Shown here in pieces: positions 3,421 through 34,772 of a stretch of 34,982 nt of DNA; positions within the stretch are counted from its first letter, which is position 1, and the number at the start of each line of letters is the position of its first letter. Source of the stretch: Saccoglossus kowalevskii. Lineage: Eukaryota > Hemichordata > Enteropneusta > Harrimaniidae. The position numbers were made by a program, and so were the translations under genes. The notes under the pieces are model-generated. The model was not told the origin of the DNA. It worked only from the letters and a program-made list of their open reading frames with translations, and did not search any database. The stretch is taken from positions 369,819 to 404,800 of the forward strand of contig NW_003116455.1 of assembly GCF_000003605.2 (NCBI RefSeq), given 5' to 3'.

Positions 3421-3427
3421 AAATGAA

Positions 3428-3830: not shown

Positions 3831-4386
3831 AAAGTAATACGAAGATGTCGTCACGAAATGAACAAATCTATCTGAGGTTCTCTCAAGGTACCAACATACC
3901 AAGTACCAAAACATTTGGGCTGGTAGTTTTCAAGAAGAAGAAACTGCATTTGTTAAAGTACGACGGACGGACAGACAGACGAGGGTCGCCTATATGACAG
4001 CGATGATAGCACAGCTAATAAGTAAGTTGTGTAAATGGACATTTATAACCAGTCACTTTAATTGTATTCATTGTCACCCTGACAGCCATGTCATATCAAG
4101 AAAATCGGTCATTTTCAAACACAACGAAATCATTATAATCTATAACATCGGATACACCAATTACTTTATTCACAGCACATGTTTGTTATTTGTTCGTCCG
4201 CGTTTATGGACCACAGTCACCGTGACTATTATCGTTAATTTGTTAAATTTACTGATTAGAAGATATCCTTTTTTTGCGTGTAATCTAAACCCGGGGTCGC
4301 CAAAAGTTAATGTCACACGATGGTGACATCGAAGTCATTAATTGTTCACGTGACACCATCTTTATTTTGACCTCCTGAACTATGAC

Positions 4387-4424
4387 AATGTCATCACCCT
4401 GACCCTTTCGGGGGTGGTGACATT
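4387..4424. repeat. Stem-loop with 12-bp arms
   Basis: The arms AATGTCATCACC and GGTGGTGACATT pair with one mismatch around a 15-base loop that itself contains CCC/GGG. A smaller related hairpin, ATGTCAC/GTGACAT, lies at about 4311-4327. It immediately precedes the decayed sphingomyelinase-like copy and may be the remnant of a terminal-inverted-repeat element. Confidence 0.6.
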
Positions 4425-4429
4425 ATTTT

Positions 4430-5236
4430 CCAAGATGATGGGAAGGTGTTTATCTGAGAACGGCATCACGTTACAAGACCTTCAGTAGACGCACGGTGGC
4501 ATATAATCAACGAAGCCGACTAAGTATTTCTGGCTATTTCAGTTTCAAAGTTGGATACGGGTCAGGATACCGATTTTGTCGCTTCTAAAGACGTATCTTA
4601 TGCGGACATCGAGAAAAAATGTTAACGGCGTCACTAGACCTTATCATATGTTTGGAACTTGTAATGCAGTCGTATGGGGATAGGCGAAACGACATTCGAA
4701 AGCACAATCTATGGAGATGCGGGCATTCATACTCAAACTAGAATGAGGAAGCCATTAATTTCGGCAGTGATTTCAATGCAGATTATGTTAATCAGCCAAC
4801 ACTTGCTGAAAAGATCATGCACGCTATAGACGTGACAGCGCCACCACTGGCAGACACTCTTATAGTGACGTACGACCGCGTGAACAAGAAAAATCAAAAT
4901 GTGACGCAGACGTCAACAGGCGGCTAGGACCACGGTAGGTAAAACCCTACTAGGATTTGTGAGCTGCTTTGTTTTATTTAAGCACCACCACGTTACTATA
5001 TTTATCAAGGATCGAAAGAATACCGCAACAGCCGCCAAGTAATCGACCGCTTCTGTGTACTGGGTGTCATGGACTTCCCTTTGGAAACTTACCAAACTGA
5101 TCCTGTGACCGATTCATACCCTACTGTTACTATGACGACACTTCGACTGTTAACATGTGTTTGGAATCTCTCATTTGACAATCAATCATCTTAACCTAGT
5201 TTTTGGGCAATTAAAGATTAAATTTCGAAAAAAAAA
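4430..5236 (+). pseudogene. Decayed sphingomyelinase-C-like gene copy
   Basis: This stretch is a degenerate relative of exon 3 of the two intact genes downstream. Successive blocks align in order but in different frames. They are a block like the MMGGC segment, then the segment before VTR-YH-FGT, then a clear FNADYV metal-site block near 4775-4800, then a VTYDR block near 4867, and finally a CVLG-MDFPLE block near 5055-5090. Breaks seen include a deletion of roughly 110 bp near the start, a frameshift near 4617, in-frame stops, and unalignable sequence at about 4930-5040. The His of the FGTHLQ motif is gone, and the last catalytic His (in DHYC of the intact genes) is replaced by Arg. ATTAAA signals (5210 and 5217) and a nine-A run (5228-5236) follow. 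The A-run raises a processed origin, but no exon 1 or 2 sequence is recognisable to test it. Nonfunctional with high confidence. Confidence 0.85.
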
Positions 5237-5660
5237 GTTTGGGCTAGCTTTATAATTTAAATTTTCGCTTATATAAGAAGAAGCAGGGTGGTATTTACCA
5301 CTACACAGTAGAGCGCCGCAAACGGTAGTAGCTCAGTGATTAAGGAGAAAATGTTAGAACGAACCACGCTAGTTTTTGTTTGTTGTATAACGTTATTAAA
5401 ATAGCATATTATAATAAAATAACTAGTTGCCATAAATTCCAGTTAAAACATCTCAAATCACGGCTTCTTCTTCTAGTAACCACGTCTCAATAAAGCATAT
5501 TGTTGGTGTCTAATACCAGGATGAAAAATCAACCAAAATGCGTGATATATGACGCAGATGTCGATCCCAGTTGCTGTCCGTTGCTATTACACGCCTGCAG
5601 CGTTGACTGCGACTTATCCTATAGTTGCCTGGTATTTACTAGTAAAACTACTTTATGATA
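5237..5660. other. Spacer between pseudogene and copy A promoter
   Basis: No exon is visible. A tRNA A-box-like string (TAGCTCAGTGATTAAGG, about 5329-5345) has no partner B-box on the same strand. Homology to the copy B upstream region begins near 5660. Confidence 0.4.
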
Positions 5661-6054
5661 ATAATATTGTCTGCGTTTGATATTCGGTAGTCACGATAAA
5701 TGCGATAATGTAGTTTTGTACCGTCATGATGTTCTGGAAAGCGTGTAGAGTGTGCGTACATCGTGTTCTCTGCAGTCGACCACGTGTGACTCGGAACCCC
5801 AACAACGTGTCGTATCGTACATACGTAACCAGGCAACTATCAGAAGGCGATGAGTTTTATGTGATTACATCATGGTTGGCCTGCATCGCATCGTCCTACT
5901 TTTTCCAAATCACTGTGTTGATTAGAGTCATGTGACATCGCAGTACTTATATATAGCTTGGCAAAAGCGCCATTTGACGCACTAAACCACTGATACCAAA
6001 CACACCAATATATAACTATCTTGTAGATGCTTCTCTGTCTGTATCATCATCGTC
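5660..6054 (+). promoter_or_regulatory. Promoter/5' region of sphingomyelinase-like copy A
   Basis: This region aligns with 16540-16916 upstream of copy B. Islands shared by both are ACCCCAACAACGT, TACATACGTA followed by GGCAACT, GTGATTACATCATG (5861-5874 here; a CRE/AP-1-like core) and ATCATGTGAC-type sequence, with an ACACACCAA stretch nearer the ATG. The conserved islands in otherwise diverged DNA are good candidates for shared control elements. They may equally be residual duplication homology. Confidence 0.55.
5948..5955 (+). promoter_or_regulatory. TATA box, copy A
   Basis: TATATATA lies 100 bp before the initiating ATG at 6055, so transcription would start near 5980 with a 5' UTR of about 75 nt. 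The aligned position in copy B reads TTAATTTAAG (16821-16830) and is no longer a good TATA box. Confidence 0.5.
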
Positions 6055-9000
6055 ATGTTTTACCTAACACGACCGAGATTACTGTTTTCTCTGTTCATTA
6101 TTTACTACTCAGGTGAGTTCATTCGCCTTTTTCAGTATGTATAGCTAACACTGTACCATTGATTGAGTCGTACTAATCAGAGAGTCGTTTAGTGGAACGT
6201 TATTTGATGAGTGGGCTAATAATTTTTAATTGCGGCTACACGATTTATTGACACTGTCATTTAAGACTTAAGTTTCAAATTCAACTGCATAACCTCATCT
6301 GCCTCGTAATTGTGCATAGTTGGTCATTGCCAATGCGTTTCTCTGTCCTTACTTCAAATCGGTGTCAGTAAACCATGTAACCTTTGATCGTCGTCATTGT
6401 TCTGTAACGCAACCCGACCATAATGTTATCTTTTCATGATTCAACTTTGGTGCTAGTAAAGTACACCGTCCTTGTCCGAGTACATACACCCACTTCAGTT
6501 TTAACTCACATCTCGTCATGCACGCAGAGTTCGAATTTCGCGTAATTCCACACATGTCGTATACGTCGCATACAACTCTTATCGAACACTCCCTTTAACG
6601 CTGTGTTATGGGATATATTTTGTTTACCGACAATGGCCAATCAGCATTGTAGACTTGTTCGTTTACAGTAAAGAACAATACCGGTATGATTATTTTCACG
6701 TGGTGCCATTCATTAGTGAACTAGCGATAAATGAGCACGCATTAAAAGTAGATTTTGACCGTGTAAATCTGCACCACTCATACTAGTTCCATGGTTTAAA
6801 TATTACGGTAGTAATGTCATGATTTATATTTTCATGTGTTTAGGTGAGGTCGCTTTTAGCGGCCATTGCGACTTTCAATGATGACCTCTGGATAACCCAC
6901 ATCTGCTCGTAACTTGTCATGATCAGGTTCATTCGTATTAGGGAATTAGTAAATGGAACAACTGGCTGATATAATGGTCGACTATGGAAGTTGGTTAAGT
7001 CAACGAGGCGCCTATAAATATTAGAGTTATGTCCCGACATCGGGGGCAATTAATCAGACATTAAGGCGTGTTAAATACTTTGCGTAATTGGCTATATGTG
7101 TGGAGGCCACGCCTCGAGCTCTTAAACTTCTCTGTAATTGGTTAACAGTTGGAAAAGTGAATAAAGCTGATCTCAGTTAGTTGTGGCAAGCTCACCAGAA
7201 GGCAAGCAGTCCTGGGGCAGCCTTGACGCAGAGTTGACGCGGTCTTGGGAGAGTTCCGACGTGGCACTGAGATTAGAGGTTGAAACGATTTGATTCTCTG
7301 TGTGTCTTTGTTCGATAGAAAGGTGGAGAATTCCCCGAACTTGGTCGCTCTGACGTGAAGGTTTAATAACACTCAAATTAAGCTTTCACAGTAAATTCAG
7401 CCGATCTGTGCTCTCGTGATGTAGGAGGCATGGCACGCCATTTTTTTAATACCCTGTTATTTGACCATTTTGTTCACTTTGTTTTCCAGCACTACATAAA
7501 AACCCATTGGGAGAAGAAATAGCATGCGATAATCCATCGCTAGAGGGACTGCGCGTCTGGTTAGGTAGGTGTAACGCATACAACATACAATTCTATGATA
7601 TTCTCACCGTTGACCAATCTGATTAACATTTGATGTTTTATTTTTTTCTTATTTTTTAGTTATTTTCTATATTTTATTTATTCATATTGTCGTTTATGTA
7701 AGTTTAGTTTTAGTTCTACTTGATTCATTTTTTCAAATACTACATCACCATACGCTTAAAACATACACAGTATAGTCTAAAGTATAGTATACTATCCTGT
7801 CTATGCTTAAACCAAAATTTTAAACATATACAAACAAAATTGGTAATAAATAAAATATGGGAACAAATAAATACAAATTGGAGCATATAGCTACATAAGA
7901 TTGGACATTGACTAACTAGTGAGTTCATGGTCTGATGAAGTATGTACTACCATCTGTTTCACGGCGAAAACGACTAAAATGTACAGTTTATGTACGTACA
8001 TTCGGTAATCTAACATTTTCACTCGACTTGATTCTTTGCATTTCAGACGACGTTCCTGGCTGTCTAGCGAATGAGAGTTACTGCGCCCTCTACGACTTCA
8101 ATTATATTTGCACTGAACCGATTACGTATGAAGGAGAAACATGCAACAACGGCACACGTGTGTTGTGCGAGGCTAAGCCGCCAGTACCACTATCCGACCC
8201 AACACCAGCGACAACCATCAAAGTGTTAAGCTATAATATTTTGGAACTGAACTATATATATTGGCAGTCTGGTCAGCGTGAACGCACTTGTCGATTACCG
8301 TATCTTATTTTCGAGAACATTGGCGATGTTGACGTCATTATTTTTCAGGAACTTATGATGGGAGGATGTTTCCCCGATGTCTTGGATTTACGCGAGCTCC
8401 TGGCCCATCACGGATTTATATACAACACACCGACGGTTGGAATCGATGCCCAAGAAAATGAGTTAATTCGACTAGAGAATGGCGGTGGCTTCACCTCATC
8501 AAGATGGCCAATAGTTGCACACGACGAGGCGGTATTACTAGCCGTGTATCGAACGGATACTGATCTGTTCTCATCCAAGGGAATCGATTATGTAAACGTG
8601 GAAAAAACCGTCGATGACGTCACCCGGAATTATCACATCTTTGGCACACACTTACAATCGCGAGACGGAGGTATGAGACCGGAGGTGCGGATCGTTCAGG
8701 CATCGGAAATGAGATTCTTCTTACAAAGGCTTGACATTCCCGCGAATGAACCAGTGATATTCGGCGGCGACTTTAATGCCGATTACGTCGAGATGCCGGA
8801 ACACGCCGAAGCAGTGCTGCATGTTATGGACGTCACGGTGCCTGAAATAGTTGGCGATCTTAGAGTGACATATGATCGTGAAAACAACACCTTAATATCA
8901 GGTGACGGCGGTTCCTGGTTAGACTATGTGACCTACCACAACCAACATCTGCAGCCGACTAAAGCAACCCTGGAATCGATCCGAATTACAGATGATCCGT

Positions 9001-9224
9001 TTTGGATCTGTAATCGTGCAAGACTGCGTGATTTCAGTTACGAGTACCCGAATTCCGAAAATTGCCGAACCCCAATGCAGGTGATCGATCTGTCGGACCA
9101 TTACTGCGTTTTGGGAACAATGGACTTTCCTTTGGAGCCTACTATTTCGTCCGCATCTACAATGTTCCGGTACTACACTGTTGGTATAGTTGTATTCGTG
9201 TTTGCAAGTCATTTAATTATCTAG
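6055..9224 (+). CDS. Secreted/anchored sphingomyelinase C-like phosphodiesterase, copy A
   Basis: There are three exons, 6055-6112, 7490-7564 and 8047-9224, all joined in phase 1 with GT-AG borders (donors GTGAGT and GTAGGT). The product is 436 aa. Exon 1 encodes a signal peptide (cleavage probably near Ser19-Ala20). A cysteine-rich linker follows (Cys32, 50, 57, 65, 77, 85), then an endonuclease/exonuclease/phosphatase-fold domain from about residue 100. Visible active-site motifs are SYNI (Asn108), FQEL (Glu146), FGTHLQ (His246), GDFNAD (Asp286, Asn288), LDYV and SDHYC (Asp395, His396). Their order and spacing match secreted bacterial sphingomyelinase C, which cleaves sphingomyelin to ceramide and phosphocholine. 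The C-terminus has small residues (SSAS), a short spacer and about 15 hydrophobic residues, as in GPI-anchor signals. The open frame runs 37 codons upstream of exon 3 into the intron, but the acceptor CATTTCAG and the match to copy B support the spliced form. Family assignment is firm; substrate is inferred. Confidence 0.9.
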
Positions 9225-10085
9225 GAACGAATTCTATAAAAAACATACCCTCATAAACTGTCCGATATATTATCGTGATGGCGGTGGTTGATTTGCCACG
9301 TGAGACTAACCGCTATTTTCTAATATCGATTGCAGTATGCAAATAAGTAGACGTAGTGGGCGCTCCTCTAATATATAAAAGCCCGCAATTTACAGTAAAT
9401 TAAAAATACTTACAAATCTCGCGTTCCCAACGTGAGAAGCCCCAGACATTTATGCATATATACGGGTAGATTTTAGTCCATAGCTTTGCTTGTGTCGGTC
9501 TTCAGTCTTTGTGATGGTGTTTTATTAATTTTGTGAGATATGAAGTCTAAAGTTGAACTTTTCGGATTAGTATTTTATTTATCGGTACTTATATTACTTT
9601 TGTTGTCTATTTTCTTTAATGGTCCTACATGCATGTAAAGACCCTTTCCTGTACTTTCTTCTCAAATGGCTGTGAGCAGTCCAAGCACACATTTGTAGCT
9701 GGCAAAACTTTACGCTATATTTGCCTCAAATTGTTATCATTCGTTCTGATGAAAATGGCAGCTTTACTAAAGTTATGTCCGATCTGGCGACCCAAATTTC
9801 AGGAAAACAAAATACACATCGTTTTTTGTCATAGGTTTTCGTTATCGTCAGTGTTTAATATACATGGTATTCCTCGATTGGTGATAATTTAGATTGTGTT
9901 ATATAACATTTTTTTGACCATTTTAGCAAAATTTAAAGGATGATTATCGCCCTCAGTTTTCAACTGGCTGTGGAACCCGGGCATTAAATGTAGCAATCAT
10001 GATGATTAAATACCTTTACAAAGACTAAAGACCTACACAAGAAGAGCTATGGTCCTATAGCTAATATGCAGACTGTAATATACAT
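9225..10085. other. Copy A 3' UTR and spacer
   Basis: Homology to the copy B 3' region continues to about 9410. The shared ATTAAA at 9399-9404 is the likely polyadenylation signal. Beyond it, to 10085, I see AT-rich DNA with short unsupported open frames and no recognised element. Confidence 0.45.
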
Positions 10086-10603
10086 TTGATCATTTTTCAT
10101 TATCACATATGGCTACACTTTCCCCCCGGAAGTATTTTCCCTGGAATGAATTCATGTTGTTCACAATGTTTTTTTAATGCTGTTAGATTCTGTTCAAATT
10201 CAAAACTGAGACAATCGAGGTCTTTTGAATATGACAAATACATAAAATACGCACAGGAAAGAAGAATCAATACAATTTACGTTTACGCACATGTTGTAAA
10301 AGAAAACTCCATAGGAACGGAATCTGCATTGAGTGCGCATGAAAATAGCTTGCTTACCAGCAGGATGCCTAACTCACTCTGGGCTATCACCCGTCAGTGG
10401 TTAAATCACATCTGGCTATATTGTACACTGAGCTTACCATTAAATAACAAACAATTTAAAGCTTCATTTAAATCTAAAGCTGACGAATGGCATCAATAAA
10501 AGGATTAATACTATCAATATCAATATATATTCCATAATAAGAAGATATTTTTAAAAAAGATTTTCTTCTTTAAATAACCAGTGTGTTTCTATTCTGGCTT
10601 AAA

Positions 10604-10659
10604 CTTTTAAATTAAGAAAGGTTGTACATGTATATGTACAACCTTTCTTATTTTAAAAG
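10604..10659. repeat. Long hairpin, 26-bp arms
   Basis: The arms 10604-10629 and 10634-10659 are reverse complements with a single mismatch, separated by the 4-base loop GTAT. The inner 17 bp pair perfectly. A stem this long with so small a loop is atypical for a microRNA precursor and more like a short transposon remnant or palindrome formed during replication. No coding sequence is visible on either side within 250 bp. Confidence 0.85.
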
Positions 10660-10927
10660 TAAAATAAAACAAGCATTACAGACCTTTTATATGACAAATT
10701 TTCCTTCAAATCCAACTGCCTGCCTGTGACTTCTTTACCTCTTTTTTTAAAGTATACCCATGTTTATCACGTTATTACTAGTTATCTGAACAGTATTCCA
10801 CATGATACGCTTTAAAGACGATGTAAGTGAACCCAAGTGCGAGGAACTTCAATATATCAACTGGATTCACAATTTTAAAATCATTTGAAGAATATGCCAG
10901 ACATTGGGATAAATGAGAGGAGGTAGA

Positions 10928-11190
10928 ACTGGATATTGTTGTTGGAGTGGGGGAAGGATATCAAAAGTGAAGTGTTTTGTCGAATTGATGGACTTGAATC
11001 CTGCGCCAACAGTCGACCAAAGTCTGGTTTAAAAAATTCTGATGCATCCAATTGTCTCTCTGCTCTCCACGATAGATATGTTGTTGTACCAGTAGACACA
11101 GCTTCCAATAATACAGTGTTTGTAAATCATATTATTGAGTGCTTTATTTAAAAACTTGGGCTTACTTCAAATACAAATTCTATCAACAGA
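10928..11190 (+). mobile_element. Penelope-like retroelement relic (N-terminal RT region)
   Basis: An open stretch of about 71 codons (10936-11151) carries the arrangement found just before the reverse-transcriptase core of Penelope-like elements: a W-x-x-DIK block, then a short-repeat linker, then SALHDRYVVVPVDTASNN and VFV. In intact elements the last part normally reads like VPADKAxNN followed by VCK and a YY segment. Here the Lys is replaced and the VCK-YY part is shortened, then a stop follows (11149-11151). KLGLTSNTNS-like sequence continues past the stop. No RT catalytic motif or GIY-YIG nuclease is seen, so this is a dead 5' fragment. Recognition rests on one motif block. Confidence 0.55.
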
Positions 11191-12119
11191 CAAATAACTG
11201 TTAGCTGAAAAACACAATACAAAACTACATTTATTATTCCAAAGAATATTGTGAACTTAAAAATATGACTTTAATTAAAACTTGATTTTATACTACTATA
11301 CCACACGAAATTGTATCAATCAAACTTTTTAAATATCAATGGCTTTAGTCATTACAAATACACAATAATTGGATACGCTTCTACCTAAATTGTTAAGAAC
11401 AAAACTGATGTGAAATTTTCTGAACTAAAGAACCGCTTTGGGTTGCAATGAAACAATATAATCTAAAAGTAAATAATGTTCTGTAACATTTTGTATCTTA
11501 ATAACAAGAGATGGTTTTAAATATATTTAGTAACGAGGTAGTGTCGTGCATTTACTGTACCGTGTGAATTAATTAACTAAAACCTTTCGAAATTCACAAA
11601 AAATCTAAAAATAACAAAAAATAACCAAAGATAAAATTTTGAGTAAATAAAGCCCGAATACGACAAGCAGACCGACAACAGTGATCTAAAACAATTGACA
11701 CTAACTATCGCTTTACGAGTAATCTGAAAATATATAAATACAAATTGAATTTTTTTTGTATATGCTAAAAAATACCTTTTCGTGCTGCTTTTCGTCATAT
11801 CGTCATACAAACTGATTGCAAAATGTTATTGTTGAAAATAGCGTTCACATTCGTAAAAAGCGATTGCAAAGTTAATAGATTTGCTTAAAAATGTGACAAA
11901 TGTCTCGCCGAAACCCTTAGTGGAAGTTTAATGAGACACATAGCAGATTGGTCGACACATCTCGACAATTGAGCCTCATGGCACGTTTATTTGTTTTGGT
12001 GACTACCTGAGCAAACCGGCTGGTGAAACTATTTTCTTGGAATATCGTCACACAATTTTCACAACAAAATACATTGTAATATAATGTGTTTGATAAATCA
12101 AAAGAATCATTGATCTTCC
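11191..12119. other. AT-rich spacer, nothing recognised
   Basis: AT-rich sequence with no exon, RNA gene or element I can support. Remnants of the Penelope-like element could extend into its left end but show no motif. Confidence 0.4.
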
Positions 12120-12389
12120 ACGTAATGAATTGATTGTACATTTATTTACTGCATAAATATTTATTGATATATCACGTAATGAAGTGATTGTACATTTATT
12201 TACTGCATAAGTAATTATTGATATACCACGTAATGAAGTAATTGTACATTTATTTACTGCATAAATATTTATTGATATATCACGTAATGAAGTGATTGTA
12301 CATTTATTTACTGTATAAGTAATTATTGATATACCACGTAATGAATTGATTGTATATTTATTTACTGCATAAATAATTATTGATATACC
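12120..12389. repeat. Tandem repeat, five 54-bp units
   Basis: Five complete units start at 12120, 12174, 12228, 12282 and 12336, each beginning ACGTAATGAA and containing TGTACATTTATTTACTG. The period is exactly 54, a multiple of three, and stops are absent in one minus-strand frame. This yields a periodic 139-codon open frame that I regard as an artefact. Units alternate between two subtypes (TGATATATC and TGATATACC endings; AAATATTTAT and AAGTAATTAT interiors). This suggests a 108-bp higher-order step. Confidence 0.92.
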
Positions 12390-13690
12390 ACGTGGTTTAG
12401 TTTGCTGGAACATGGGAGGTTTGATAAAGAACTTCACTATCTTGTCTTTTTTGGCGTTGCAAACCATATTTGGCTGAAATGCTTACGCTTATGAAATGTT
12501 ATATGGGCGTGGTCGTTTTTGTAACTCGATGTCCGTAACTTAACAATCCAGCAACTCTCATGCTCAAGACTTTGACTGGAGGGGGCGGGGCGGGGGGGGG
12601 GTATAAACATTCGAAGTATAAAGTTAACGAGAAAGGATAGGTTTAGCACAGAACTATTGTAGGGGCAGGCGATATTGCTGGAGACGAGTAACCATACCAA
12701 CCATTATTGTTGTACCTGATAATTTTGCGGAGTTCATTTGTGGCATCGTAATTGTACCAGTGTGCATTCTTGTACCTACCTAATTAGCTATTATAATTGT
12801 ATTCAAATATATTGGCGCCCATCAGTCGAAAGTATCAGTGTGCCACACTAATGTAACTTTAAACTTGTTAAGAACCCGCAAACGAAGTGATACAAATTAT
12901 TTACTGACAAAAAAACAATTTCTAAACATTTCTTTTTGATTTGTTGGAAAAATTAGTTTTGTGTTGAATATTTCAAATATGTTGAAAACTATAAGTTTGT
13001 CATGGCTGACGTAAAAATGTGCCAAATATATCTAATTGGATTGGGACAAAACTATAAAACATTGTACAGAAATATATTAACATGTATGACATACAATGAA
13101 TATTGTGCATATCATAGTTTTATTGTACTGTATTGTAGAAATGTAACATTCTGTACATATTGAATACGGGACTTGGCGCTGTGTTATGTGCACATTACCA
13201 AGTTGGGATGCACGGGCAGTACATATTTGTGTCAGACATTATTTGATTTTACAAAATAAACAAATAAAATTGGAATAACCTATTGCACCTACATGAACAA
13301 AAATATTTTTGATATTTGATTAGCTGTTCTTGAGTAGATTTCGACTGTGACAGAAATATTTAAAGAATGGACAGTAACACAAGTTACATAATAGATTTAT
13401 TTAGTTATGCTACTAATGTTGTTAATTAGGATAGAATTCAGTTTTGCAAAAGTAAACCTCCAATTGGTTCACATAACACGTGTCCAAAAACGTTTTTATA
13501 TAAAGGTATTTGTCATCCACAAACCTAACTAGAAGACACTCTGCGTAATCTTCAAAACATATTTATGTTATTGATATAATTTTTATTTTTTTTAAAAGAA
13601 AGACTGGACATTTACTCAAACAATCAGATATTAATCTAATAATGGTTAGGTATTCTCCAATTCTTCAACAAGATCCAGTTCTCGCCTAAA
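12390..13690. other. Spacer with a G-rich tract
   Basis: No gene is visible. A guanine tract, GGGGG-C-GGGG-C-G10, lies within 12578-12601 and could fold as a G-quadruplex. The rest is AT-rich and unrecognised. Confidence 0.45.
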
Positions 13691-14490
13691 ATGTAATAAT
13701 CGATTGCTCCCCTCCTGAACATATTATGAAAATTCGTCCTCAATTTGTGTCGTTTTCAATAAACAATCATTTACAAAATAGCTGTTTCCAAAATCTCTCT
13801 AATATTTTAGTATTATTTCAGTTAACCTCTTAAAATTCTTCTAACATCAAAGTCAATGGAAATTCCCCTATCATAAATAAAATCGATATGATCAGTCTTT
13901 TGTCATTTTAAGAGTATCCGCACTGTAAATTTCATGACAATCCATCCATATGATTTTGAGTTATTAATGAAAAGTCATTCAGAATTTACATCTTTACCAA
14001 ATCTAATCTATTGGTATATGTGTCAATGGCAACCCCTCCTGAAATTGTGATAATAAACCATCCATAGCTTGTTTATAGGGTTAACCCTCCCGAACATTTC
14101 ACGGGCAAATAGCCATAACGTGTTTAGTTAATAACTAAAGAAAAAAAAAACATTCCCAAAATTACATTTCAAACAAACTATCACGAGAACCCAACTATAA
14201 CTTTTTGAGTTATTAATAAAATAGCTATTTTCATTACAATAGAATCCGATTCTATACCAAAGTCGACCCTGTTTAAGCTATACGTATTTTACCATATGTG
14301 AGAATCGCAACTTTTTTTAGACATTATTTTTTTATAGCACATGCTAACGTATTTCTAGAATACCAGTTACCTATCAAATCCAAGAATTCTTTACCAAACT
14401 GATCGATCCTTATCTGAAGATACACACCTTCTGAAAATTGAGAATCTATTCAAATATGTATGAATGAAAAGTCATTCCCTAAATGTGAAA
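13690..14490. repeat. Degenerate repeat region (CATCCATA...GAGTTATTAAT motif)
   Basis: Several diverged copies of one theme occur. It runs roughly CTCCTGAAA, then TTTCATGA, then AATCCATCCATA, then TTTTGAGTTATTAAT, then AAAAGTCATT. The clearest copies are at about 13930-13990 and 14178-14235. Weaker ones are near 13709, 14030, 14085 and 14430. Similar families are widespread in marine invertebrate genomes. No open frame survives. Confidence 0.45.
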
Positions 14491-14655
14491 TAAACATGAT
14501 GTATTTTGGCACATCATACCCCTAGTTGAAGTGCAGTTAGCTGCGATTTCTACTTGTGACACATATACAAAACACGTTACAGGTATTGCTCCAATACTAT
14601 CTGAATATTATGGTATCGAGAGAAGGAAACAAGAAAAATACAATTAAAAATGGTT

Positions 14656-15014
14656 TCACTATATTATGTATTTTTTTATTGTGCATTTAGTGTTTAATTA
14701 GGGATGTTTCCAAGAACCCAATGTGGGTAAGCATTTTCGCCGTACATTAACATACCAGGTTGTGTGACAGGTTGTAGACAGAGAATTTCATTTGTATACT
14801 GATTAGTTGAATATCCAGCTTTATTATATCATTGGATCACTATATTATGTACTTTTTAAAGCTGATCAAAATTTATTGTGCATTTAGTGCTTAATTAGGA
14901 ATGTTTCCAAGAATTTAGATGTGGGTAAACATTGTCTTCGTACATTGACATACCAGGTTGTGTGACAGGTTGTAGACAGAGTATTTCATTTGTGTACTGA
15001 TTAGTTGACTATCT
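14656..15014. repeat. Direct duplication of a 160-180 bp segment
   Basis: Copy 1 (14656-14815) and copy 2 (14836-15014) share the order TCACTATATTATGTA, TTATTGTGCATTTAGTG, TTAATTAGG-ATGTTTCCAAGAA, ATGTGGGTAA-CATT and a long block with ACCAGGTTGTGTGACAGG, ending in GATTAGTTGA. Copy 2 carries a short extra stretch (about 19 bp) near its start. Divergence is moderate, so the duplication is not recent. Confidence 0.85.
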
Positions 15015-15087
15015 AGGCTCATCATCATGTGTAATTTATAATTATTTTTTCAAATGACCAACGTCAGAGTCAGAATATAATGTATAT

Positions 15088-15122
15088 ACTTATATATATA
15101 TTTATATAATATATATATAAGT
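15088..15122. repeat. 35-bp AT palindrome
   Basis: ACTTATATATATAT and ATATATATATAAGT form 14-base complementary arms around a 7-base centre. It is a near-perfect cruciform-prone AT tract lying just after the direct duplication. Confidence 0.8.
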
Positions 15123-16540
15123 TTTCCCCAGTGTTTATTTTTTAATAATATACTAGTATCACGGGACGGAGTTTTGAACTAATTAACAAACATCTAACCG
15201 CCACAAAATGTGATGCCAAAAAGAAATATGTTTATTCACTGCTGACGTAATAATACTATAGATAGTGTTGAGTAATACCTCAATGACATTCTTTGCAAAA
15301 TATGCATGGAGTTAATTGATTATCCCAAATCCGATAATGGCACACTCTCAAGAGGCAAAGTCTAATGGTACACATAACTGTACTCGAACGCATGTATATC
15401 CCGTATGTAAACATACGCTGTCGTACTTTTCTTCTTCCGTTTTCAGCTAAGCGATTGCATTGCATAAATTAGTTGCGTGATACGCCATTTTATTAAAGCG
15501 GATAACAACACACGCTAAAAACGCAAAGGCTCAGGGGTAGATTATTGTTTGTACACAATGACACGCTATGGCCATCTGACGCATGCGCAGGTGATGACTC
15601 CCTTGCTTTAACACCCACCATCGGTGAAATTGTTTTGTCAATTTCGGGAAAACAATTCACCACTTGTTGACGATATAAAGGTCTTTTTAGATCTGACACT
15701 TGTAAATTGACTAAATGGTTTACATTTCTTAATTTATTAGTTATTATGCACAGTCAAATTACTGTTTACAGAAACCAAGTTTTGAATGTCGTGAAATGTC
15801 ATCTTTCAACGCTTTCTTCACGATAACTACGCGCTGTGAATTGGGTTCGTTGACGGACTATATCTGCGGAACAAAGGCTCACTTTCAACGAACAGTAAAC
15901 AAATCAAAAAATAGAACGAGCAACGAGAAACTCAATCCTGGAAGCACACAAAACGTAAACAATCATATACAAGCTTTCTGAAAACATATATTGCCATAGC
16001 TGTATGCTATCTAAAAATAACAAATTTACCTAAACAAATTTCAGTTGGTTTCCGTTTCAACTTCTCCATACGAACTGTTGTTTCGTTGGTATTCATGGTA
16101 ATACGTAGCCCTTGGCTTTGCTTTACAGCTTTATTTTTTATTTTGAGTTTGAAGTAGAGTCATATTGGTGGAAAATAAAGCCCCAAACCTACACACCCGG
16201 AGCGTATGGTACTTTCTTGTTCTCGCCTGATTCTGGCTCATTGAGAGAGGGGATGAATTCCTGATCAGAAAAAAATGACCAACGAACGTCATGAGGCTAA
16301 CGAACATACACGAAGGCGATCGGATCGCACAACCATAGTTCGTGAGTCGAAACAGTGTATCGGAACAAACACAACACCTCTTTGCAATTTGGAGGAATAA
16401 ACTTGTTCAATTTCCATCACTGGCTCCGAGATACTGTCAACAACTCGTGTTACGAGCCATCCGTGATAGCAAGCTGTTACTATGTTTTATGTTGTTTTAC
16501 AAATATTCTGTGTTTGCTATTTTTACTATAATATTAATTA
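15123..16540. other. Spacer, nothing recognised
   Basis: AT-rich DNA with short open frames on both strands that have no domain, signal peptide or splice context. An ACGCATGCGCAG string near 15580 resembles an NRF-1 site but has no gene attached. Homology to the copy A upstream region starts near 16540. Confidence 0.4.
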
Positions 16541-16916
16541 ATGCGTTCTGTGTCTGTAATATTCGCTAGTGACAGAAATACAATGGTGTAGTGCTGTGTT
16601 GAACAATCCATTTAATTCTAGAAAGTGTGTAGTGTGCTTAAATGTCTACCCTAGTCGCCCACTTGTAGCCTCAAACCCCAACAACGTCACTTACATATCC
16701 TACATACGTAGCAAGGCAACTGTAAGGACATGAGTTCTATATGTGATTACATCATGTGTAGAGGGCATTGTACCGCCGCATTTTTTCTGGGATGATTGGG
16801 ATCATGTGACCCCGTGTTACTTAATTTAAGGTAAGGATCACTTGGTGGATTTGAGCACTGCTACCGAACACACCAAAGTAAGACCGTGGGGTAGATGCTC
16901 TATGATCGCCATCAAG
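16540..16916 (+). promoter_or_regulatory. Promoter/5' region of sphingomyelinase-like copy B
   Basis: This is the duplicate of 5660-6054, with indels and many substitutions. It keeps the GTGATTACATCATG island (16743-16756), ACCCCAACAACGT and TACATACGTAGC. It has lost the TATA box of copy A, with TTAATTTAAG in its place. An additional in-frame ATG at 16902, absent from copy A, could add five residues before the Met at 16917. Confidence 0.5.
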
Positions 16917-19900
16917 ATGTTTTATTTAACAAGACCGGGATTGCTGCTGTCTTTGCTTATTATTCACTACTCACGTGAGTTTACTCGTTTATTTTTCATT
17001 GTGTAGAGAACATGTACATGTGCATGGGAACGCTCAGACATCCAAAATGTATATTACCATAATTCAGATGGTTGGGGAGTAAATTAGGCTGTAAGTATGT
17101 CCAGGTTGCATTATTAACACTTATGATTGAAAGAAAACAGTTGATAACAAATCCTATGCACCCCTATCTATTCCGCATCGGCCTGATTAGCGTAGGAAAG
17201 ACACATCCATGCTGTAGTACAGCTTTTCCAAATATCCTTCCTTATTTTAATCAGTACCATTGGCCATAAGCCATAATGTATACACTTAAATGTAACGCAA
17301 ATAAATAAATAGATTGTTTGACAAGAATAACCACTACTACTACTAGTCTGAATATTACAAACTTATACTTCACCTATGAATACCAAATTATATTTATATT
17401 TCAGTTAAATTTCCTTCCAACAAACTATGACGTTTTTGTAAAGAATAAAATACGTATTTTGCAAGATTTTGTATTGTATGTGTATTTTCAGATTGCAGTA
17501 GCAAAATAAATTACCATCGGCCTTTTGGCTAAGATTATGTGTAGTATCTGTTCTTATCAGCTTAATCCTTACTTATTTTTATGAAATTAAACCTCTTTTT
17601 CAAGTGCAGAAACTTAGAATAGATACCATATATACATACTAAAATTATACTGTTTCCAAGTTGAGGTAACATGAATTCATGAGATTCCTTTATTTATATA
17701 TTTTAAAATATTCGACCCTAAACGCGGTACACGCGTATACGCGCCAAATAAATAAATACACCTCTATTACGCATTTTTTTTATTTCAGCTTGTGTACCAT
17801 ATTTTTATTCAGAGAACAAACCACCGGAAAGACACTCACAGAATCGTTTAAAAGATATGATGGTACTTTTTAGGAATGAAACAAAAACATTGGAGTAAAT
17901 TGAACAAGTGTTGATTCTAGCTAGATAAGCGAACCCAACAAACGACCAATTGTAGATGCTTGGGTCTTCAACCCAATTTGTTGAAGCTACGTTAAATCAA
18001 CGTATTATTCACACATTAATTAATTAGATGTTGAAAATCGATTGAATAAGGAAATGGAATCAACATACTAGTAGATTTTGACATTGAAACAATGCATGTA
18101 TATTTATGTTGAACTAACGTTAAATCACTTTTATATAACTGAGTTGAAATTAAGTTTAAATGCCAATACTGGAACATGTGATCATATCAACATTGAGTAA
18201 ATATTAATGAACTGATGTTCAATAAACGTCATATAAGCACTTTTTCAAAACGTTCATAATGACCGAAAAACCAACGTTAACCGATTAAATTCACTAATAT
18301 CTGATTGAGGTCTACCTACGTTTGCATATACAATGTCAAAGCAATTGGTCAAGCAGTGTTCGAAAAGTCAGGAATAATATTTTTTTTACCAAAACTAAAA
18401 TTACCGTCCTAGCAAAATTAATACTGCTCTCAAAGATGGTGCCAACGTTCGACTCGACGACATAGAGCGGACTTTTAGTATTATATTTTCCACAGGCATC
18501 CACCCACATCCTATTGTCTGGTGCATATTACCCCGTCCTAAGTGGTGACATTCTTTGTCATTAAACTTGGCAAAAAAAGGGAAGACTACCTTTAAAGATC
18601 TATGGCACCTATTTATAGTATGCGGCAATAAGTTGACAACCTTGAACTAGGAATTGAATCAGCAATGTACATGTATGACATGATGTTAGTGCAATCTTTG
18701 AACTTGATTGTTCCCCTCATGTCAGAGATATCGTTTTAAAACACCATTGATGAAAACAATTTGTCTGTCAGTTTGGCATTATGATTTCGAAAAATATTGT
18801 ATGACTGTTCATTTTATTTTCGTTATGTTATGATTTAAAACAGCTATTTCAATTATTTACAGCTGATACATTTTCTCCGAATTTCATTAATATATTACAA
18901 TGCTGCGTCACACATCCTTAATTTTATAAGTAGAACAGAGAAGTTAAAAATTGTGAGCTGTAAATGAGAAAATTTATGTCCAGGATAATTGCGTAACGTT
19001 AAGAAATTAGGGAGAATCTTGTTAGGAATATGTGAATGAATGGTTTGGATTCAATAATTCCTACCATACCTCTCAGCCTATTAAATTTATTTAAAATTGT
19101 CAACCATATATATCATATATGTATCTGTTGTGCTTTGTTTCCTGCTGAGTTTATGTATACCCGCGTGTTTTTTCATAAAACTTATATGTTTGAGTCTGTT
19201 CCAGTATAGTCTACTGGAATCCGACCCCTGAGAGTTAAGTTAAGTTCTTCATACCCTCCAACATTTGTTGATGCAAAGTCTATGACAAACAAACAAGATG
19301 TCCGAACTGCAGATACAATGCAAAAAACAGATGTCATCACACAAACAATTCGAATGAAAAAATATGATTCCTTACATTCAATGAGATTCATAGACAGTCG
19401 ATTGAAATGCCTTCTACGGACACTTAATCAGATTCACTTCAAACTATGCATGTATCATTATTATTATTCGGCATACATAATTTAATTAATATTGTAAATA
19501 TGACATATTTTCTTGATTCTTTTGTGACGTGGTGAATTTAGAGAAGCAGTTTTCTTGACGTTGATACATTTTAGATTCGGGTGTCAATTTATTCATATTG
19601 TAATGAACCACCCACGTGTTTTTTTTGTATATAACTGGTTTGCTTGATTCTGTTCTAGAATATTTTATTTGAACCCCCCTATCTCAGGGAGTTAAGTATA
19701 TATATATATATATATTCGCGCCAAAGGTATCTCATCCTACCATTCTAGGATTAAAAACTACGGACATAGATCATTCCACTCAGCCTGAGTGTGGGCAAAA
19801 AATTACTGTTTGTTTGTTTTTATTTTCATTACCGAGAAATTTGACCTCAAAGGTTAGGTAATTTTTCACATAGCTTTTTTAGCTCTTATGTGATTTGTTT

Positions 19901-22900
19901 GGTTTGGCTGAATTTGCTCATACTTGACAGGCAGGTCGTACCGTTACTAATTGGAAAATAATACTGGCCCACCACTGCCATGGCAACAGCCTCCCCAAAA
20001 ACTGATTTTTGAATACTTTCTCCCCAAATTACTTCCTACCAGTCTTGTAATAGCAGTGTTCAAATGGCCATACTTTTTGCTCACCGACAAGAGATTACCG
20101 GCGCCGACATTATTACACTGCATCAACGTGATATATTTGCAACGCAACTTTGAATTTTGAATGAACTGTAAATGTTGCGTTCAATCTAGAAAATACAATG
20201 GTAAATATTAATCAATGACAATTCAGCAAAAACATAAGCATGATTCAATGTGTTATTTTTATTGTCATTAATATAGTATGGTAAGTACGTGTATGCCAGT
20301 CATTTAACACTGGCTATAGTCGTTGCTGTTAGTACTGCAAATTACTGATTCCACATAAAGGTAAGTAATATTGAAAGAAATGTATATATTATCTGTACTT
20401 ATTCTATTAAAGTCACACTTGAATCAGTACATATACCGTTTTCCAACAAACGTGTCTCTGAGTGAACTCTGTTTCAAACTGATTTTTTTTTGGAATCAAG
20501 CAGCTTTTATAATATTTCTTTTTTCCTTCTGTTGTTTCCAGTTTTTAAATACCTCTCTAAAATTGGTCCCTCTATATTTATTTTCAATAATCTGCTAACA
20601 GGACTGGTTCTCAATAAGTTCCTCATATTTGTTTCCACTACGTTATACTATAAAAAAAAATCACTGAAGTGCATGGTGTATGACAATTAATTCACATATA
20701 TTTGCATAAATACTAACATCTTTCATTATAACATGTCTGCAAAACTCCACCAGACTCGAGGTTTTGTTTTGAATCACCAATGGTAATATAATAAGCCATT
20801 CCATCTGAATGATGTCCGAGTCAATTATTGGCTCATATACAATACCATCACTTCTAGTTTTTGATACTCCAAAATATTCAATTATTTGTTTTAGCTCCGT
20901 CCTACCAGAATTGATATCAGAAACATCTTTAGGTAAGATAAATGGCTCAAATATGCCAAATGCCACCATCAAGTCAGAATTTGGAAATCTTTTTGAAATA
21001 TTCAGTACTACCTTGTCAATGAATTCAGCTTGAGTAGTTTCAAATATTTCCTCTCTTTGTTCCGTGTCCTTTATCTGATGAGACATAAACATAGATAATC
21101 CACTCTCTGTAGCATTCAAACTTGGTACAAGTTTCTAAAATTCTTGCGATGTTACACCAGGATTAGTCTTGAGCCCATGCATGGCCATAATATATGCTTT
21201 TAATTTTTGCTAATAAGTTTACAAAACAGGTAAGTAAACTATCAATACATATTATGATAGATTATACAGACCTATGAAAAAAAAATGATATGAAACGTCT
21301 GCTTTAATGTCACGGATGTGTTTTCTTGCAACATTTCGCTTTAGATTTTATAAATTCTTTGGAGAATAATGAAAGAATTTGAAGAGAACATTAACAATTT
21401 CTTGAATTTTTACAAGATATTTAATATTGTTCGCAGCGTTTCCACTTGATAGGGCTAACCTATGAGCAAGGCAATGGTTACTAAGTATGTAAGGGTTTAA
21501 ATCATTCTTGAATTTAGTTGTAACACCAGCTTTAGTAACAGTCATTACAGAGAATCCATCTGTAGCAAGAGCAATTATGTTTTTATGACTAAAACTAGAA
21601 TGTCGACAGTCTAGACTAAGATCTCTGTTTGTTAAATATACACCATCCACAAGATCACGCTCATCTGACTAACTGTTGCTACGTGTACTTAGAGCGCGGA
21701 CAGACTTGTATAGGTAATCTCTGTGTGTAAACGGTGCATCCGAATTTAATAGTTACTCCATGCTATTAAGGCTAGTTCTTCTCTTTATATTTAAAAATCT
21801 GCTTGTAAAAAAGTATTTCGTTCGGTAATTTGCGTCATAATAATTATTAATTGTTATGTATTTGAAATAGATACATACCTACTGGAGTAACCAAATTTAA
21901 ATAAAGATAATTTATCTACTTATGGAACATGATAAAAAAAATCGCCATTGCATGGCGCTCTCTACGTGCGCGCCATCAATTATAATAGCTAGAATTCTAC
22001 GTGTAACCTGTTTATAATTGATAATGTTGTCACTTTGTTTTCCAGCACTACATAAGAATCCATCGGGAGAAGAAATAGCATGCGACAATCCATCGCTAGA
22101 GGGACTGCGCGTCTGGTTAGGTGGGTGTAACGCATTCAACACATTTCTAAATTATTCTGACCACTGACCTACTGGAGAGTACGTGTTCTGACTAAATGTC
22201 AAATGAGCGATCATATGAAACACCGTTTTGTGCAAATTGTTTTATCAGCGAGGACACATACATGTATATTTAATATCAGCAACAAATACTAGTAACAACT
22301 AAGTTGTTTTAAAGGGCGGTGGTCGTCGCGCCACGAATGCACGAGCTATGGGTCTCGTAAGATGGTGACTTTGACTTACCCAGTCCAATGAGTACAAACT
22401 GAGTCGTTACTAAGCTTTAACTAGATAATTTATTTAGTGATTAGAAGGTAACGGAGAGTCGCCGGCGAGAATTAGTGCAAGTAGCGCCCAGGTCAAAACT
22501 CGGGTTCGTGATTGTATTAGAAGAGCGCATTGGATTGTGGGAAAACACAAATTTCGCACATGCGCGGAGAGACTACTACCGCTTTTTAACTTTGGATGCG
22601 AACAACGGGTTCTTGTCACCCAGTTGCTACGCATGCGCACGCGAGCAAAACGTGCAGAACAGCTTATTGAATAATGAACAGTGTATCAATGAACGGTTTG
22701 CTAGATTCGTCTCTCAGCTGATTCGATAGGACTTCCCTTTAAATTTAACATTAAACAGGTTTTAAGAAAAAGTGACAAAAGAGAAATAAGTTGCTACTTT
22801 ATTTATTTAAGCTTTTCGCGCCTACGATTATTTGTGTGAAAAAAAAAACAAAAAAACATCGGGAACAAACGCTTAGCTTGAGTGAAAAGATGATAAGGCG

Positions 22901-24663
22901 AGTGTGTTTCGTTGTATTCTGCTCTCCAAATACAATAAAAAATGAACCCCGACCTCAAACTAGGTCGACTTGATTCAACAAGTGTGAATGCAGCGTACGG
23001 TTCGATTCACGTTCGATTCGATTATGATTCATACTTTTATTGCCATACTTATAATTCACAGAATTCCAATATTCGTTGCAATTTAATATTTTTTGAGAAA
23101 ATCAAGGTTGTAAATAGTTTCATAGTCAGATCTGCGTATATGGCGAATTCACAGTCTCGCTCACATCGCAAATTACATGGCCCCAAATCCCACCACCAAG
23201 TATAGAAACGCGCGAGAAATGCGTGGATATGATTAAAAGAATATGAAACATATGTAATAAATATAGTCTCAAATTATCCCCACCTAATGCTAAAAAACAA
23301 CAAATTAAAATCTCAAAAACAAGGACGTAAAGAGTGGCTATATTTTTATTTATTTACAATTATTGTTTTTTGAGCTTCTTCCGCGTACTCAAATGCGTCA
23401 AGAAAATGACATGCACATCAACTATTTATATTGATCACCATTTTTTCCGCACAAAAATATTGTCTCATTGAACCGTACACTGTTTTCACGCTCGTCTTGA
23501 TTCTCTGCGTTTCAGATGACGTTCCTGACTGTCTAGCGAATGAGAGTTACTGCGCCCTCTACGACTTCAACTATATTTGCACTGAACCGATTACGTATGA
23601 AGGAGCAAAATGCAACAACGGCACACGTGTGTTGTGCGAGGCTAAGCCGCCAGTACCACTATCCGACCCAACACCAGCGACAACCATCAAAGTGTTAAGC
23701 TATAATATTTTGGAACTGAACTATATATATTGGCAGTCTGGTCAGCGTGAACGCACTTGTCGATTACCATATCTTATTTTCGAGAACATTGGCGATGTTG
23801 ACGTCATTATTTTTCAGGAACTTATGATGGGAGGATGTTTCCCAGATGTCTTGGACTTACGCGAGCTCCTGGCCCATCACGGATTTATATACAACACTCC
23901 GACGGTTGGGATCGATACCCAAGAACATGAGTTAATTCGACTAGAGAATGGTGGTGGCTTCACCTCATCAAGATGGCCAATAGTCGCACACGACGAGGCG
24001 ATATTATTAGCCGTGCATCGAACGGATACTGATCTGTTCTCATCCAAGGGAATCGATTATGTAAACGTGGAAAAAACCGTCGATGACATCACCCGGAATT
24101 ACCACATCTTTGGCACTCACTTGCAATCGCGAGACGGAGGTATGAGACCGGAGGTGCGGATCATTCAGGCAGCGGAAATGAGATTCTTCCTACAAAAGCT
24201 TATGATTCCCGCGAACGAGCCAGTGATATTCGCCGGTGACTTTAATGCCGATTACGTCGAGATGCCGGAACACGCCGAAGCAGTGCTGCATGTTATGGAC
24301 GTAACGGTGCCTGAAATAGTTGGCGATCTTAGAGTGACATATGATCGTGAAAACAACACTTTAATATCAGGTGGCGGCGGTTCCTGGTTAGACTATGTGA
24401 CCTACCACAACCAACATCTGCAGCCGAATAAAGCAACCCTGGAATCAATCCGAATAACAGATGATCCGTTTTGGATCTGCAGCTTTGTAAGATCATTGCT
24501 CGATTTCAGTTACGAGTATCCGAATTCCGAAAATTGCCAAAGCCCAGTGCAGGTGGTCGATCTGTCCGACCATTACTGCGTTTTGGGCACAATGAACTTC
24601 CCTTTGGAGCCCGAGATTGACAATCCCCTTGTTACGGCCTCTCCTATAATTTTCCGACACTAG
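16917..24663 (+). CDS. Secreted sphingomyelinase C-like phosphodiesterase, copy B
   Basis: The exons are 16917-16974, 22046-22120 and 23516-24663, phase 1 throughout, 426 aa. The first donor is AC|GTGAGT, weaker than the AG|GTGAGT of copy A. The layout matches copy A: signal peptide, six-Cys linker, then a catalytic domain with Asn108, Glu146, His246, Asp286/Asn288 and His397 all present, so it should be catalytically competent. It differs from copy A in a short patch after DDPFWIC, where it is one residue longer and more hydrophobic. It also ends earlier: TAG at 24661-24663 falls where copy A has a Tyr codon, removing the hydrophobic tail. The predicted product is therefore free and secreted. 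Intron 1 (5.1 kb) is swollen by transposon relics and a U2 snRNA fragment. The likely poly(A) signal is AATAAA at 24839-24844. The enzyme family is firm; expression and substrate are inferred. Confidence 0.88.
17509..17566 (+). pseudogene. U2 snRNA 5'-end fragment
   Basis: From TCGGCCTTTTGGCTAAGAT through GTGTAGTATCTGTTCTTATC to CAGCTTAAT the sequence follows the 5' third of U2 snRNA almost base for base, including the GUAGUA branch-point-recognition element. The match stops at about U2 nucleotide 58; stem IIb, the Sm site and the 3' stem-loops are absent. The first dozen bases match poorly. It sits in intron 1 of copy B on the same strand. It is therefore a truncated retro-pseudogene or the head of a U2-derived short interspersed element, not a working U2 gene. 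Confidence 0.85.
17950..18320. repeat. Degenerate GTTGAA / ACGTTAAATCAACGT repeat region
   Basis: Variants of GTTGAAxxxACGTTAAATCA recur here on both strands, with a small hairpin TTGGGTCTTCAACCCAA at 17960-17976 and an ATGTTGA/TCAACAT pair near 18026-18068. It looks like an old MITE or short satellite. Boundaries are uncertain. Confidence 0.4.
18405..18653 (+). pseudogene. Broken coding relic, family not recognised
   Basis: One plus-strand frame reads through about 83 codons with a single internal stop (18546-18548) and has strong protein character. The first part includes LDDIERTFSIIFSTGIHPHP and PIVWCILPRP; the second includes NLAKKGKTTFKDLWHLF. It lies inside intron 1 of copy B, among other transposon remains. 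I do not recognise the family. A transposon-encoded protein is the likeliest source given the setting, but that is inference. Confidence 0.35.
19156..19715. repeat. Pair of direct repeats plus (TA)n tract
   Basis: Two related segments of about 90 bp (19156-19245 and 19607-19700) share the order ACCC-CGTGTTTTTT, TATAA-CT, TTGA-TCTGTTC-AG, GAA-CC-CCC and GAG-GTTAAGT. The second ends in a (TA)n run, 19697-19715. Spacing of 450 bp suggests two insertions or one duplicated piece; they do not look like LTRs. Confidence 0.4.
20661..21680 (-). mobile_element. hAT-type transposase relic (ZNF862-like), broken
   Basis: Read on the minus strand from 21680 downward. The first block (to about 21348) has ERDLVDGVYL, ALATDGFSVMT, GVTTKF and NHCLAHRLALS. 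These are the catalytic-Asp block and the following HC-AHRLAL block of hAT/ZNF862-type transposases. After a gap of unalignable sequence (about 21215-21345), LKAYIMAMHGLKTNPGVTSQ-like sequence appears with a stop. A 152-codon stretch (21119-20661) then has KRFPNSDLMVAFGIFEPFILP, the RFP...F-P hallmark of the C-terminal half. The N-terminal zinc finger and the C-terminal dimerisation block are not seen. Stops and the gap make it inactive. It is inserted antisense in intron 1 of copy B and accounts for part of that intron's length. Confidence 0.7.
22330..22740. repeat. Locally GC-rich segment in copy B intron 2
   Basis: This stretch is less AT-rich than its surroundings and has two NRF-1-like strings (CACATGCGCGG near 22557, CGCATGCGCACG near 22630). 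A block at 22490-22545 also resembles 3085-3150 (shared TCAAAACT, GTTCxTG, GAACGCATT/GAGCGCATT). It is absent from the shorter copy A intron, so it is an insertion of unknown type. Confidence 0.35.

Positions 24664-30906: not shown

Positions 30907-34772
<3,866 letters not shown>

What the first reader, a model, noticed from the sequence alone, without database searches (positions are those of the whole stretch)
4430..24663. Three-copy tandem cluster of bacterial-type sphingomyelinase-like genes with an intronless catalytic exon
Two intact genes and one dead copy lie on the same strand within 20 kb. The whole catalytic domain (about 340 residues, spacing of Asn, Glu, His, Asp/Asn and His like secreted bacterial sphingomyelinase C) is in one exon. 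The signal peptide and the start of the Cys-rich linker are on two tiny exons. That layout is what one expects if an intronless bacterial gene was acquired and then gained 5' exons. The transfer itself is inference; the layout and motifs are seen.
Basis: partly seen in the sequence, partly recalled or inferred. Interest (0 to 1): 0.75.

Follow-up and report, generated by a model that had tools for sequence, protein, structure and literature searches.

The report
Ancient bacterial-type sphingomyelinase genes in acorn worm
An acorn worm carries a large family of probable lipid-cutting enzymes of a kind known from bacteria, likely picked up from bacteria long ago in animal history, and this window holds two working copies and one dead copy.

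The parts
4417..5152 (+). Copy 1: decayed, 5'-truncated remnant of a catalytic exon
   Evidence: tblastn pieces at 4491-4616, 4612-4740, 4748-5128 in different frames, 31-39% identity; other relatives extend to 4417 and 5152; genome search reports 1 TAG and 2 TAA inside its best piece
6055..6112 (+). Copy 2 exon 1: signal peptide
   Evidence: ATG, hydrophobic stretch, GTGAGT donor; lies in a block 69% alike with copy 3
7490..7564 (+). Copy 2 exon 2: short spacer and the first residues of the Cys-rich linker
   Evidence: splice consensus, 87% block with copy 3, matches the spliced Glandiceps and Ptychodera proteins
8047..9224 (+). Copy 2 exon 3: rest of linker, whole catalytic domain, C-terminal tail
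   Evidence: single open frame; TIGR03395 1e-23; AlphaFold model mean pLDDT 92.1
8047..8168 (+). Cys-rich linker repeat of copy 2 (begins at 7558 in exon 2)
   Evidence: HMM built from 51 presumed bacterial repeats matches residues 43-85, 18.9 bits; best score among shuffled sequences 10.4
8196..9134 (+). Catalytic DNase I-like domain of copy 2 with N, E, H, D/N, D/H motifs and the two-Cys insertion
   Evidence: N63, E101, H201, D241, N243, C321, C339, D350, H351 invariant in 36 of 36 chosen linker-type rows; the same catalytic residues invariant in 22 of 22 rows that include four classical ones
9156..9221 (+). Hydrophobic C-terminal tail of copy 2, GPI-signal-like (inferred)
   Evidence: 12-residue Kyte-Doolittle maximum 2.77; predicted helix 370-390 at low confidence
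16917..16974 (+). Copy 3 exon 1: signal peptide
   Evidence: ATG and GTGAGT donor
22046..22120 (+). Copy 3 exon 2
23516..24663 (+). Copy 3 exon 3: rest of linker and catalytic domain; open frame stops before a hydrophobic tail
   Evidence: single open frame; TIGR03395 1.2e-22; tail maximum 0.97; splicing to a later exon is not excluded

Best explanation
The window carries part of a large acorn worm family of secreted or surface-held enzymes of the bacterial sphingomyelinase C type. Shown: the layout, the homology, the predicted fold, conserved active-site residues, purifying selection between copies 2 and 3, and the grouping with echinoderm proteins. Inferred: the enzyme uses a divalent metal and the conserved His/Asp/Asn set to cut the phosphodiester of sphingomyelin-like lipids in the outer membrane leaflet; the Cys-rich repeat, which also stands in front of GDPD and PI-PLC domains in presumed bacterial proteins, helps place it at membranes or glycans; copy 2 is anchored by its tail and copy 3 is released. 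Origin, inferred: a bacterial gene that already had linker repeats plus the catalytic domain entered an animal ancestor no later than the ancestor of Ambulacraria, gained a signal-peptide exon and a phase-1 intron just inside the last linker repeat, lost repeats in most lineages, and gained a hydrophobic tail in the branch that includes the window genes.
Against: AU tests do not reject linker-type bacteria as one clade (p 0.479; p 0.384), so animals nested inside bacteria is favoured, not shown. Separate placement of Ambulacraria and of the flatworm/plankton line is not rejected either (p 0.298; 0.245; 0.141). Ambulacraria drops to 83/24 in the catalytic-only tree. A eukaryote protein from EukProt (P0043) also belongs to the family and was left out of the careful trees. 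Most linker-type rows are unnamed metagenome proteins; only L009 and P0028 carry a bacterial label. The repeat also occurs with an astacin protease domain (P0065), so it is no proof of a lipid role. In one search the repeat HMM scored five ambulacrarian proteins (P0008, P0013, P0046, P0071, P0087) no higher than the best shuffled sequence and gave P0014, P0015 and P0031 no match. The tail is missing from P0007, P0010, P0015, P0074, P0089, P0090 and from copy 3. No activity, RNA or localisation data. TIGR03395 cut-off not reached.
Confidence: 0.7

Rival explanations
1. Several transfers: Ambulacraria and the Macrostomum/plankton line each took a linker-type gene from related bacteria.
For: Patchy distribution; AU does not reject it (p 0.298, 0.245, 0.141).
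Against: Free trees join them at 92/95 and 100/98.
Confidence: 0.3
2. Vertical inheritance from an early eukaryote with loss almost everywhere.
For: A eukaryote member P0043 and planktonic eukaryotes exist.
Against: In three searches the only named animals were hemichordates, echinoderms and Macrostomum; the outgroup and the deep branches appear bacterial. Search sensitivity is limited by shared words, and many hits are unnamed.
Confidence: 0.12
3. Recent acquisition private to this acorn worm, as the layout alone might suggest.
For: Intronless catalytic exon.
Against: Relatives at 55-58% identity in Glandiceps and Ptychodera and named members in starfish, sea urchins, sea cucumbers, a brittle star and a crinoid (class assignments recalled); same intron phase throughout.
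Confidence: 0.02
4. The fold is right but the substrate is not sphingomyelin: another lipid, or another phosphodiester.
For: 26-28% identity to the solved SMase C chains listed; TIGR03395 cut-off missed; marine invertebrate lipids differ (recalled).
Confidence: 0.25
5. Contamination of the assembly by bacterial DNA.
For: Bacterial-type protein.
Against: Introns, six contigs of up to 1.0 Mb, relatives in many animals, database proteins of S. kowalevskii that match.
Confidence: 0.005

Closest known systems
Bacterial sphingomyelinase C (TIGR03395; solved Bacillus, Staphylococcus, Streptomyces and Listeria enzymes)
   Different: Classical rows fetched here showed neither the two-Cys insertion nor a linker score above 3.5 bits; identity 26-28%
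Linker-type SMase C, apparently bacterial (P0016, P0024, P0027, P0028, L009 of a Mariprofundus MAG)
   Same: Cys-rich repeat(s) fused to the same catalytic domain; same two-Cys insertion
   Different: One to five repeats, one uninterrupted frame, no hydrophobic tail
Ambulacrarian 'sphingomyelinase C-like' proteins named by NCBI (Glandiceps P0001, Ptychodera P0002, Patiria P0006)
   Same: Same family; P0001 and P0002 are the nearest relatives of copies 2 and 3 outside this genome
   Different: Annotated one by one; copies 2 and 3 group together apart from P0001 and P0002
Animal neutral sphingomyelinases (human nSMase1 and nSMase2)
   Different: Lower identity (18-19%); different membrane topology and layout (recalled)
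GDPD-like sphingomyelinase D/PLD toxins of spiders and bacteria (PMC6299612)
   Same: Another patchy animal-bacteria sphingolipid phosphodiesterase for which lateral transfer is argued (passages seen)
   Different: Different fold and chemistry (fold recalled)

Membership tests
Bacterial-type sphingomyelinase C superfamily | DNase I-like fold closest to SMase C | tested here: met
Bacterial-type sphingomyelinase C superfamily | Catalytic N, E, H, D-x-N, D-H residues | tested here: met
   Invariant in 22 of 22 rows and 36 of 36 rows; their roles are recalled
Bacterial-type sphingomyelinase C superfamily | Hydrolyses sphingomyelin | not testable with these tools
   Needs an assay
TIGR03395 equivalog | Score above the curated cut-off of 248.2 | tested here: not met
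   84.2 and 80.7 bits
Linker-type SMase C | Cys-rich repeat fused N-terminally | tested here: met
   18.9 and 18.5 bits for copies 2 and 3; shuffled maximum 10.4
Linker-type SMase C | Two-Cys insertion before the last Asp-His | tested here: met
   C321 and C339 invariant in 36 of 36 rows
Linker-type SMase C | Falls in one clade apart from classical SMase C | tested here: met
   100/100; P0029, which has the repeats but a catalytic domain beside or outside this clade, was left out of those trees
Gene acquired by horizontal transfer from bacteria | Animal clade nested inside bacterial sequences | tested here: inconclusive
   Nested in the best trees; linker-type bacteria one clade in 10% and 2% of 200 bootstrap trees, but AU p 0.479 and 0.384
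GPI-anchored protein | Cleaved and lipid-linked C-terminus | not tested
   Hydrophobic tail only

The most novel reading that the evidence does not exclude
A bacterial gene with three Cys-rich repeats and a sphingomyelinase C domain was taken up before flatworms and Ambulacraria split, was kept in only a few animal lines, still shows its bacterial repeat order (with the 'CC' repeat in the middle) in some acorn worm paralogs, and was turned in most ambulacrarians from a secreted enzyme into a surface-anchored one by a tail that grew onto the same exon.
Probability: 0.35. Interest if true: 0.7.

Novelty: new variant of a known kind. Interest (0 to 1): 0.5.

Why it matters
It gives an unusually legible record of how a bacterial gene may become an animal gene: the donor-like architecture, the exon that stayed intronless, the added signal-peptide exon, repeat loss and a gained membrane tail can each be placed on a tree. 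It also points to a Cys-rich repeat, found here in front of sphingomyelinase C, GDPD and PI-PLC domains, that deserves study, and to 22 catalytic units of this kind in an animal used to study deuterostome origins.

Tried and rejected
Young private transfer: rejected by relatives in other hemichordates and echinoderms. Contamination: rejected. Virus carrier: one scan of viral contigs gave 10 pattern matches, none confirmed. Processed-copy origin of copy 1: a short A-run follows it, too little to decide. Donor phylum: of 398 genomes searched in the phylum of L009's genome 19 had some match, and among the 19 matches listed only that of L009's own genome reaches into the linker part; the genomes of L021, L032 and L022 (3 of 3) had catalytic matches without the linker, and L021's also a separate linker-only match with a stop in it; the phylum of L021's genome gave only 5 genomes, 2 of them with catalytic matches at 1e-20. 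Literature: eight searches of the held library found no paper on this family in their listings; most subscription papers are not in that library, and the hemichordate genome paper of 2015 is not held. PMC6006793 was looked at through a term search only and does not contain 'sphingomyelin'; of PMC6299612 I saw passages.

Rows left out: of the 80 bacterial loci 29 classical ones plus L009 went into the first tree; P0029, P0033, P0043, P0047, P0092-P0094 and near-duplicates were dropped before the careful trees for long or unsure branches. P0029 has linker repeats but a catalytic domain that falls beside or outside the linker clade, so linker and catalytic domain may have been joined more than once. 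The AU tests that could have settled nesting did not. In checking I lowered one claim: the 22 units are catalytic exons, not 22 genes, because those on C2529 alternate like the two units of P0031 and P0071.

Full report
What is there. The exon-3 protein of either intact gene finds three places on the + strand of the window: full-length copies at 8022-9221 and 23491-24660 (88-90% identical) and a broken one in pieces between 4491 and 5128; hits of other relatives extend the last to 4417-5152. The upstream exons are supported by splice consensus and by comparison with spliced relatives: copy 2 at 6055-6112, 7490-7564 and 8047-9224, copy 3 at 16917-16974, 22046-22120 and 23516-24663, giving proteins of 436 and 426 residues. 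There is no RNA evidence for exons 1 and 2. Between copies 2 and 3 dN is 0.032-0.036 and dS 0.094-0.126 over 363 codons, so the protein is being kept.

How big the family is. The window lies in a 572 Mb assembly of 4830 contigs. A search of it gave 26 matches, a lower bound for large families by the tool's own words. I read them as 22 catalytic units: twelve within about 54 kb of contig C2529 (ten full length, two cut by assembly gaps), two on C4614, one each on C3419 and C2923, one intact and two broken on C4170, and the three in the window. That makes 17 with an unbroken catalytic frame. Units are not genes: along C2529 they alternate between types that group with the first and the second half of the two-unit protein P0031 (P0071 is built alike), so the twelve units there are probably some five to seven genes, most of two units (inference). 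Two units match NCBI or UniRef proteins of Saccoglossus kowalevskii at 99.4-100% over the last exon (P0090 to L103, P0089 to L099), which identifies the genome as that species or a very close one.

The linker is bacterial too. Searching with P0016 brought in proteins with the same architecture: signal peptide, one to five copies of a repeat of the form W-x-G-x-x-P-x-C...D-C...C...G-x-K-V-x-C, then the catalytic domain. P0024 is an unbroken 648-residue frame on a 3.4 Mb contig, P0028 is labelled a bacterial MAG, and L009 from a Mariprofundus MAG lies just upstream of gnd- and zwf-like genes; the other rows are unnamed and presumed bacterial. An HMM built from 51 repeats of 15 such proteins matches residues 43-85 of copy 2 with 18.9 bits against a best of 10.4 among 2540 shuffled sequences. 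In the same call five ambulacrarian proteins (P0008, P0013, P0046, P0071, P0087) scored no better than the shuffled maximum, and P0014, P0015 and P0031 gave no match; classical bacterial rows reached at most 3.5. The same repeats also occur in front of GDPD and PI-PLC-X domains (P0042, P0048 above the Pfam cut-off, P0041 just below), and in an astacin protein (P0065), so a membrane role is a guess. Animals and linker-type bacteria also share two cysteines in an insertion before the last Asp-His: invariant, and present in 1 of 80 bacterial SMase loci from the genome scan, namely L009 (in six of the 80 the pattern did not find the stretch).

Repeat order. Three hemichordate proteins (P0007, P0089, P0090) have extra repeats, and the middle one carries a Cys-Cys variant; P0027 and P0028 also have three repeats with the Cys-Cys variant in the middle (by eye). 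The repeat HMM finds all three in P0007 but only the middle one in P0089 and P0090, whose outer repeats are degenerate. This is the most specific sign that the whole architecture moved as one. In the S. kowalevskii genes for P0089 and P0090 each extra repeat is on its own exon; in L098, the relative of P0007, both seem to share one exon.

Tree. With 72 rows and 495 columns the linker-type clade separates from classical SMase C at 100/100, Ambulacraria at 99/97, and Ambulacraria plus Macrostomum plus planktonic eukaryotes at 92/95. On the catalytic domain alone (312 columns) the eukaryote clade rises to 100/98 and lies among the linker-type bacteria (a 97/96 branch leaves some of them outside), while Ambulacraria falls to 83/24. 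AU tests do not reject the linker-type bacteria as one clade (0.479, 0.384) nor separate placements of the two animal groups (0.298, 0.245, 0.141). So the affinity to linker-type proteins is firm; the direction and number of transfers are judged by parsimony.

Introns. In 20 of 22 units an AG acceptor lies 8, 14 or 17 bases before the first linker cysteine, always phase 1; copy 1 and one gap-cut unit lack that region. Where several AGs were near I took the one in register. For two units the S. kowalevskii database proteins agree. Open frames P0046, P0075, P0077 and P0087, which group inside Ambulacraria, read as if through the same acceptor (by eye). No intron interrupts the catalytic domain in the 17 unbroken frames. 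In Macrostomum the protein P0081 has a long insertion relative to P0079 within the catalytic domain, which may be an intron read as coding.

The tail. Past the last Asp-His, 20 of 26 ambulacrarian proteins have a hydrophobic segment (12-residue maximum 1.9 or more), against 0 of 21 linker-type bacterial and 0 of 4 flatworm or plankton proteins; the six without are P0007, P0010, P0015, P0074, P0089 and P0090. Among the 15 units of this genome examined, 7 have such a segment, one of which (L095) may be read into an intron. Copy 2 has the tail (2.77); the frame of copy 3 stops before it (0.97), though splicing to a later exon is not excluded. A split into an anchored and a free enzyme is the simplest reading, untested.

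Age of the pair. In 14 of 15 steps of 60 bases from 8080 to 8979 copies 2 and 3 are 93-100% identical (88% in the other), with 11 of 130 fourfold sites different over 310 codons, and exon 2 is 90-97% alike; yet the introns fall within tens of bases to about 40-60%, as expected of unrelated sequence aligned end to end, the 3' coding end to 67-70%, and the region around exon 1 to 43-80%. That fits gene conversion of the catalytic exon between older duplicates better than a young duplication.

Novelty. NCBI already calls several of these proteins sphingomyelinase C-like, so membership is not new. Eight searches of the held library found nothing on the family, its linker, or its bacterial relatives in their listings. 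I rate it a new variant of a known kind.

Noticed in passing
window 8020-8980 and about 23485-24450: Catalytic exons of copies 2 and 3 are far more alike than their introns, tails and promoters: a gene-conversion-like tract.
   Followed up: partly
contig C2529 of the window's genome, 100211-154258 (loci L089-L095): Twelve catalytic units on one strand that alternate between types grouping with the first and second halves of P0031, suggesting a tandem array of two-unit genes.
   Followed up: partly
window 17511-17616 (+): U2 spliceosomal RNA match, 52.6 bits against a gathering score of 46, inside intron 1 of copy 3; gene or pseudogene not decided.
   Followed up: no
window 20661-21119 and 21348-21650 (-): Two open frames in intron 1 of copy 3 that look like pieces of a transposon-derived protein; no Pfam match at E 0.1; the transposon reading is recalled.
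   Followed up: partly
window 3406-3839: Degenerate tandem repeat of about 37 bases just upstream of copy 1, rich in GATAATATTATC.
   Followed up: no
window 12047-12447: 54-base tandem repeat, about six copies.
   Followed up: no
window 31967-32787: Tandem repeat of about 322 bases, copies mostly 85-89% alike.
   Followed up: no
proteins P0041, P0042, P0044, P0048, P0065: The same Cys-rich repeats stand beside GDPD, PI-PLC-X and astacin domains, so the repeat is a mobile module.
   Followed up: partly
P0031 (Glandiceps) and P0071 (Ptychodera): Proteins of 828 and 826 residues with two linker-plus-catalytic units.
   Followed up: partly
P0005 (Glandiceps): A family member for which a C-type lectin domain (PF00059) is listed besides the catalytic domain.
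   Followed up: no
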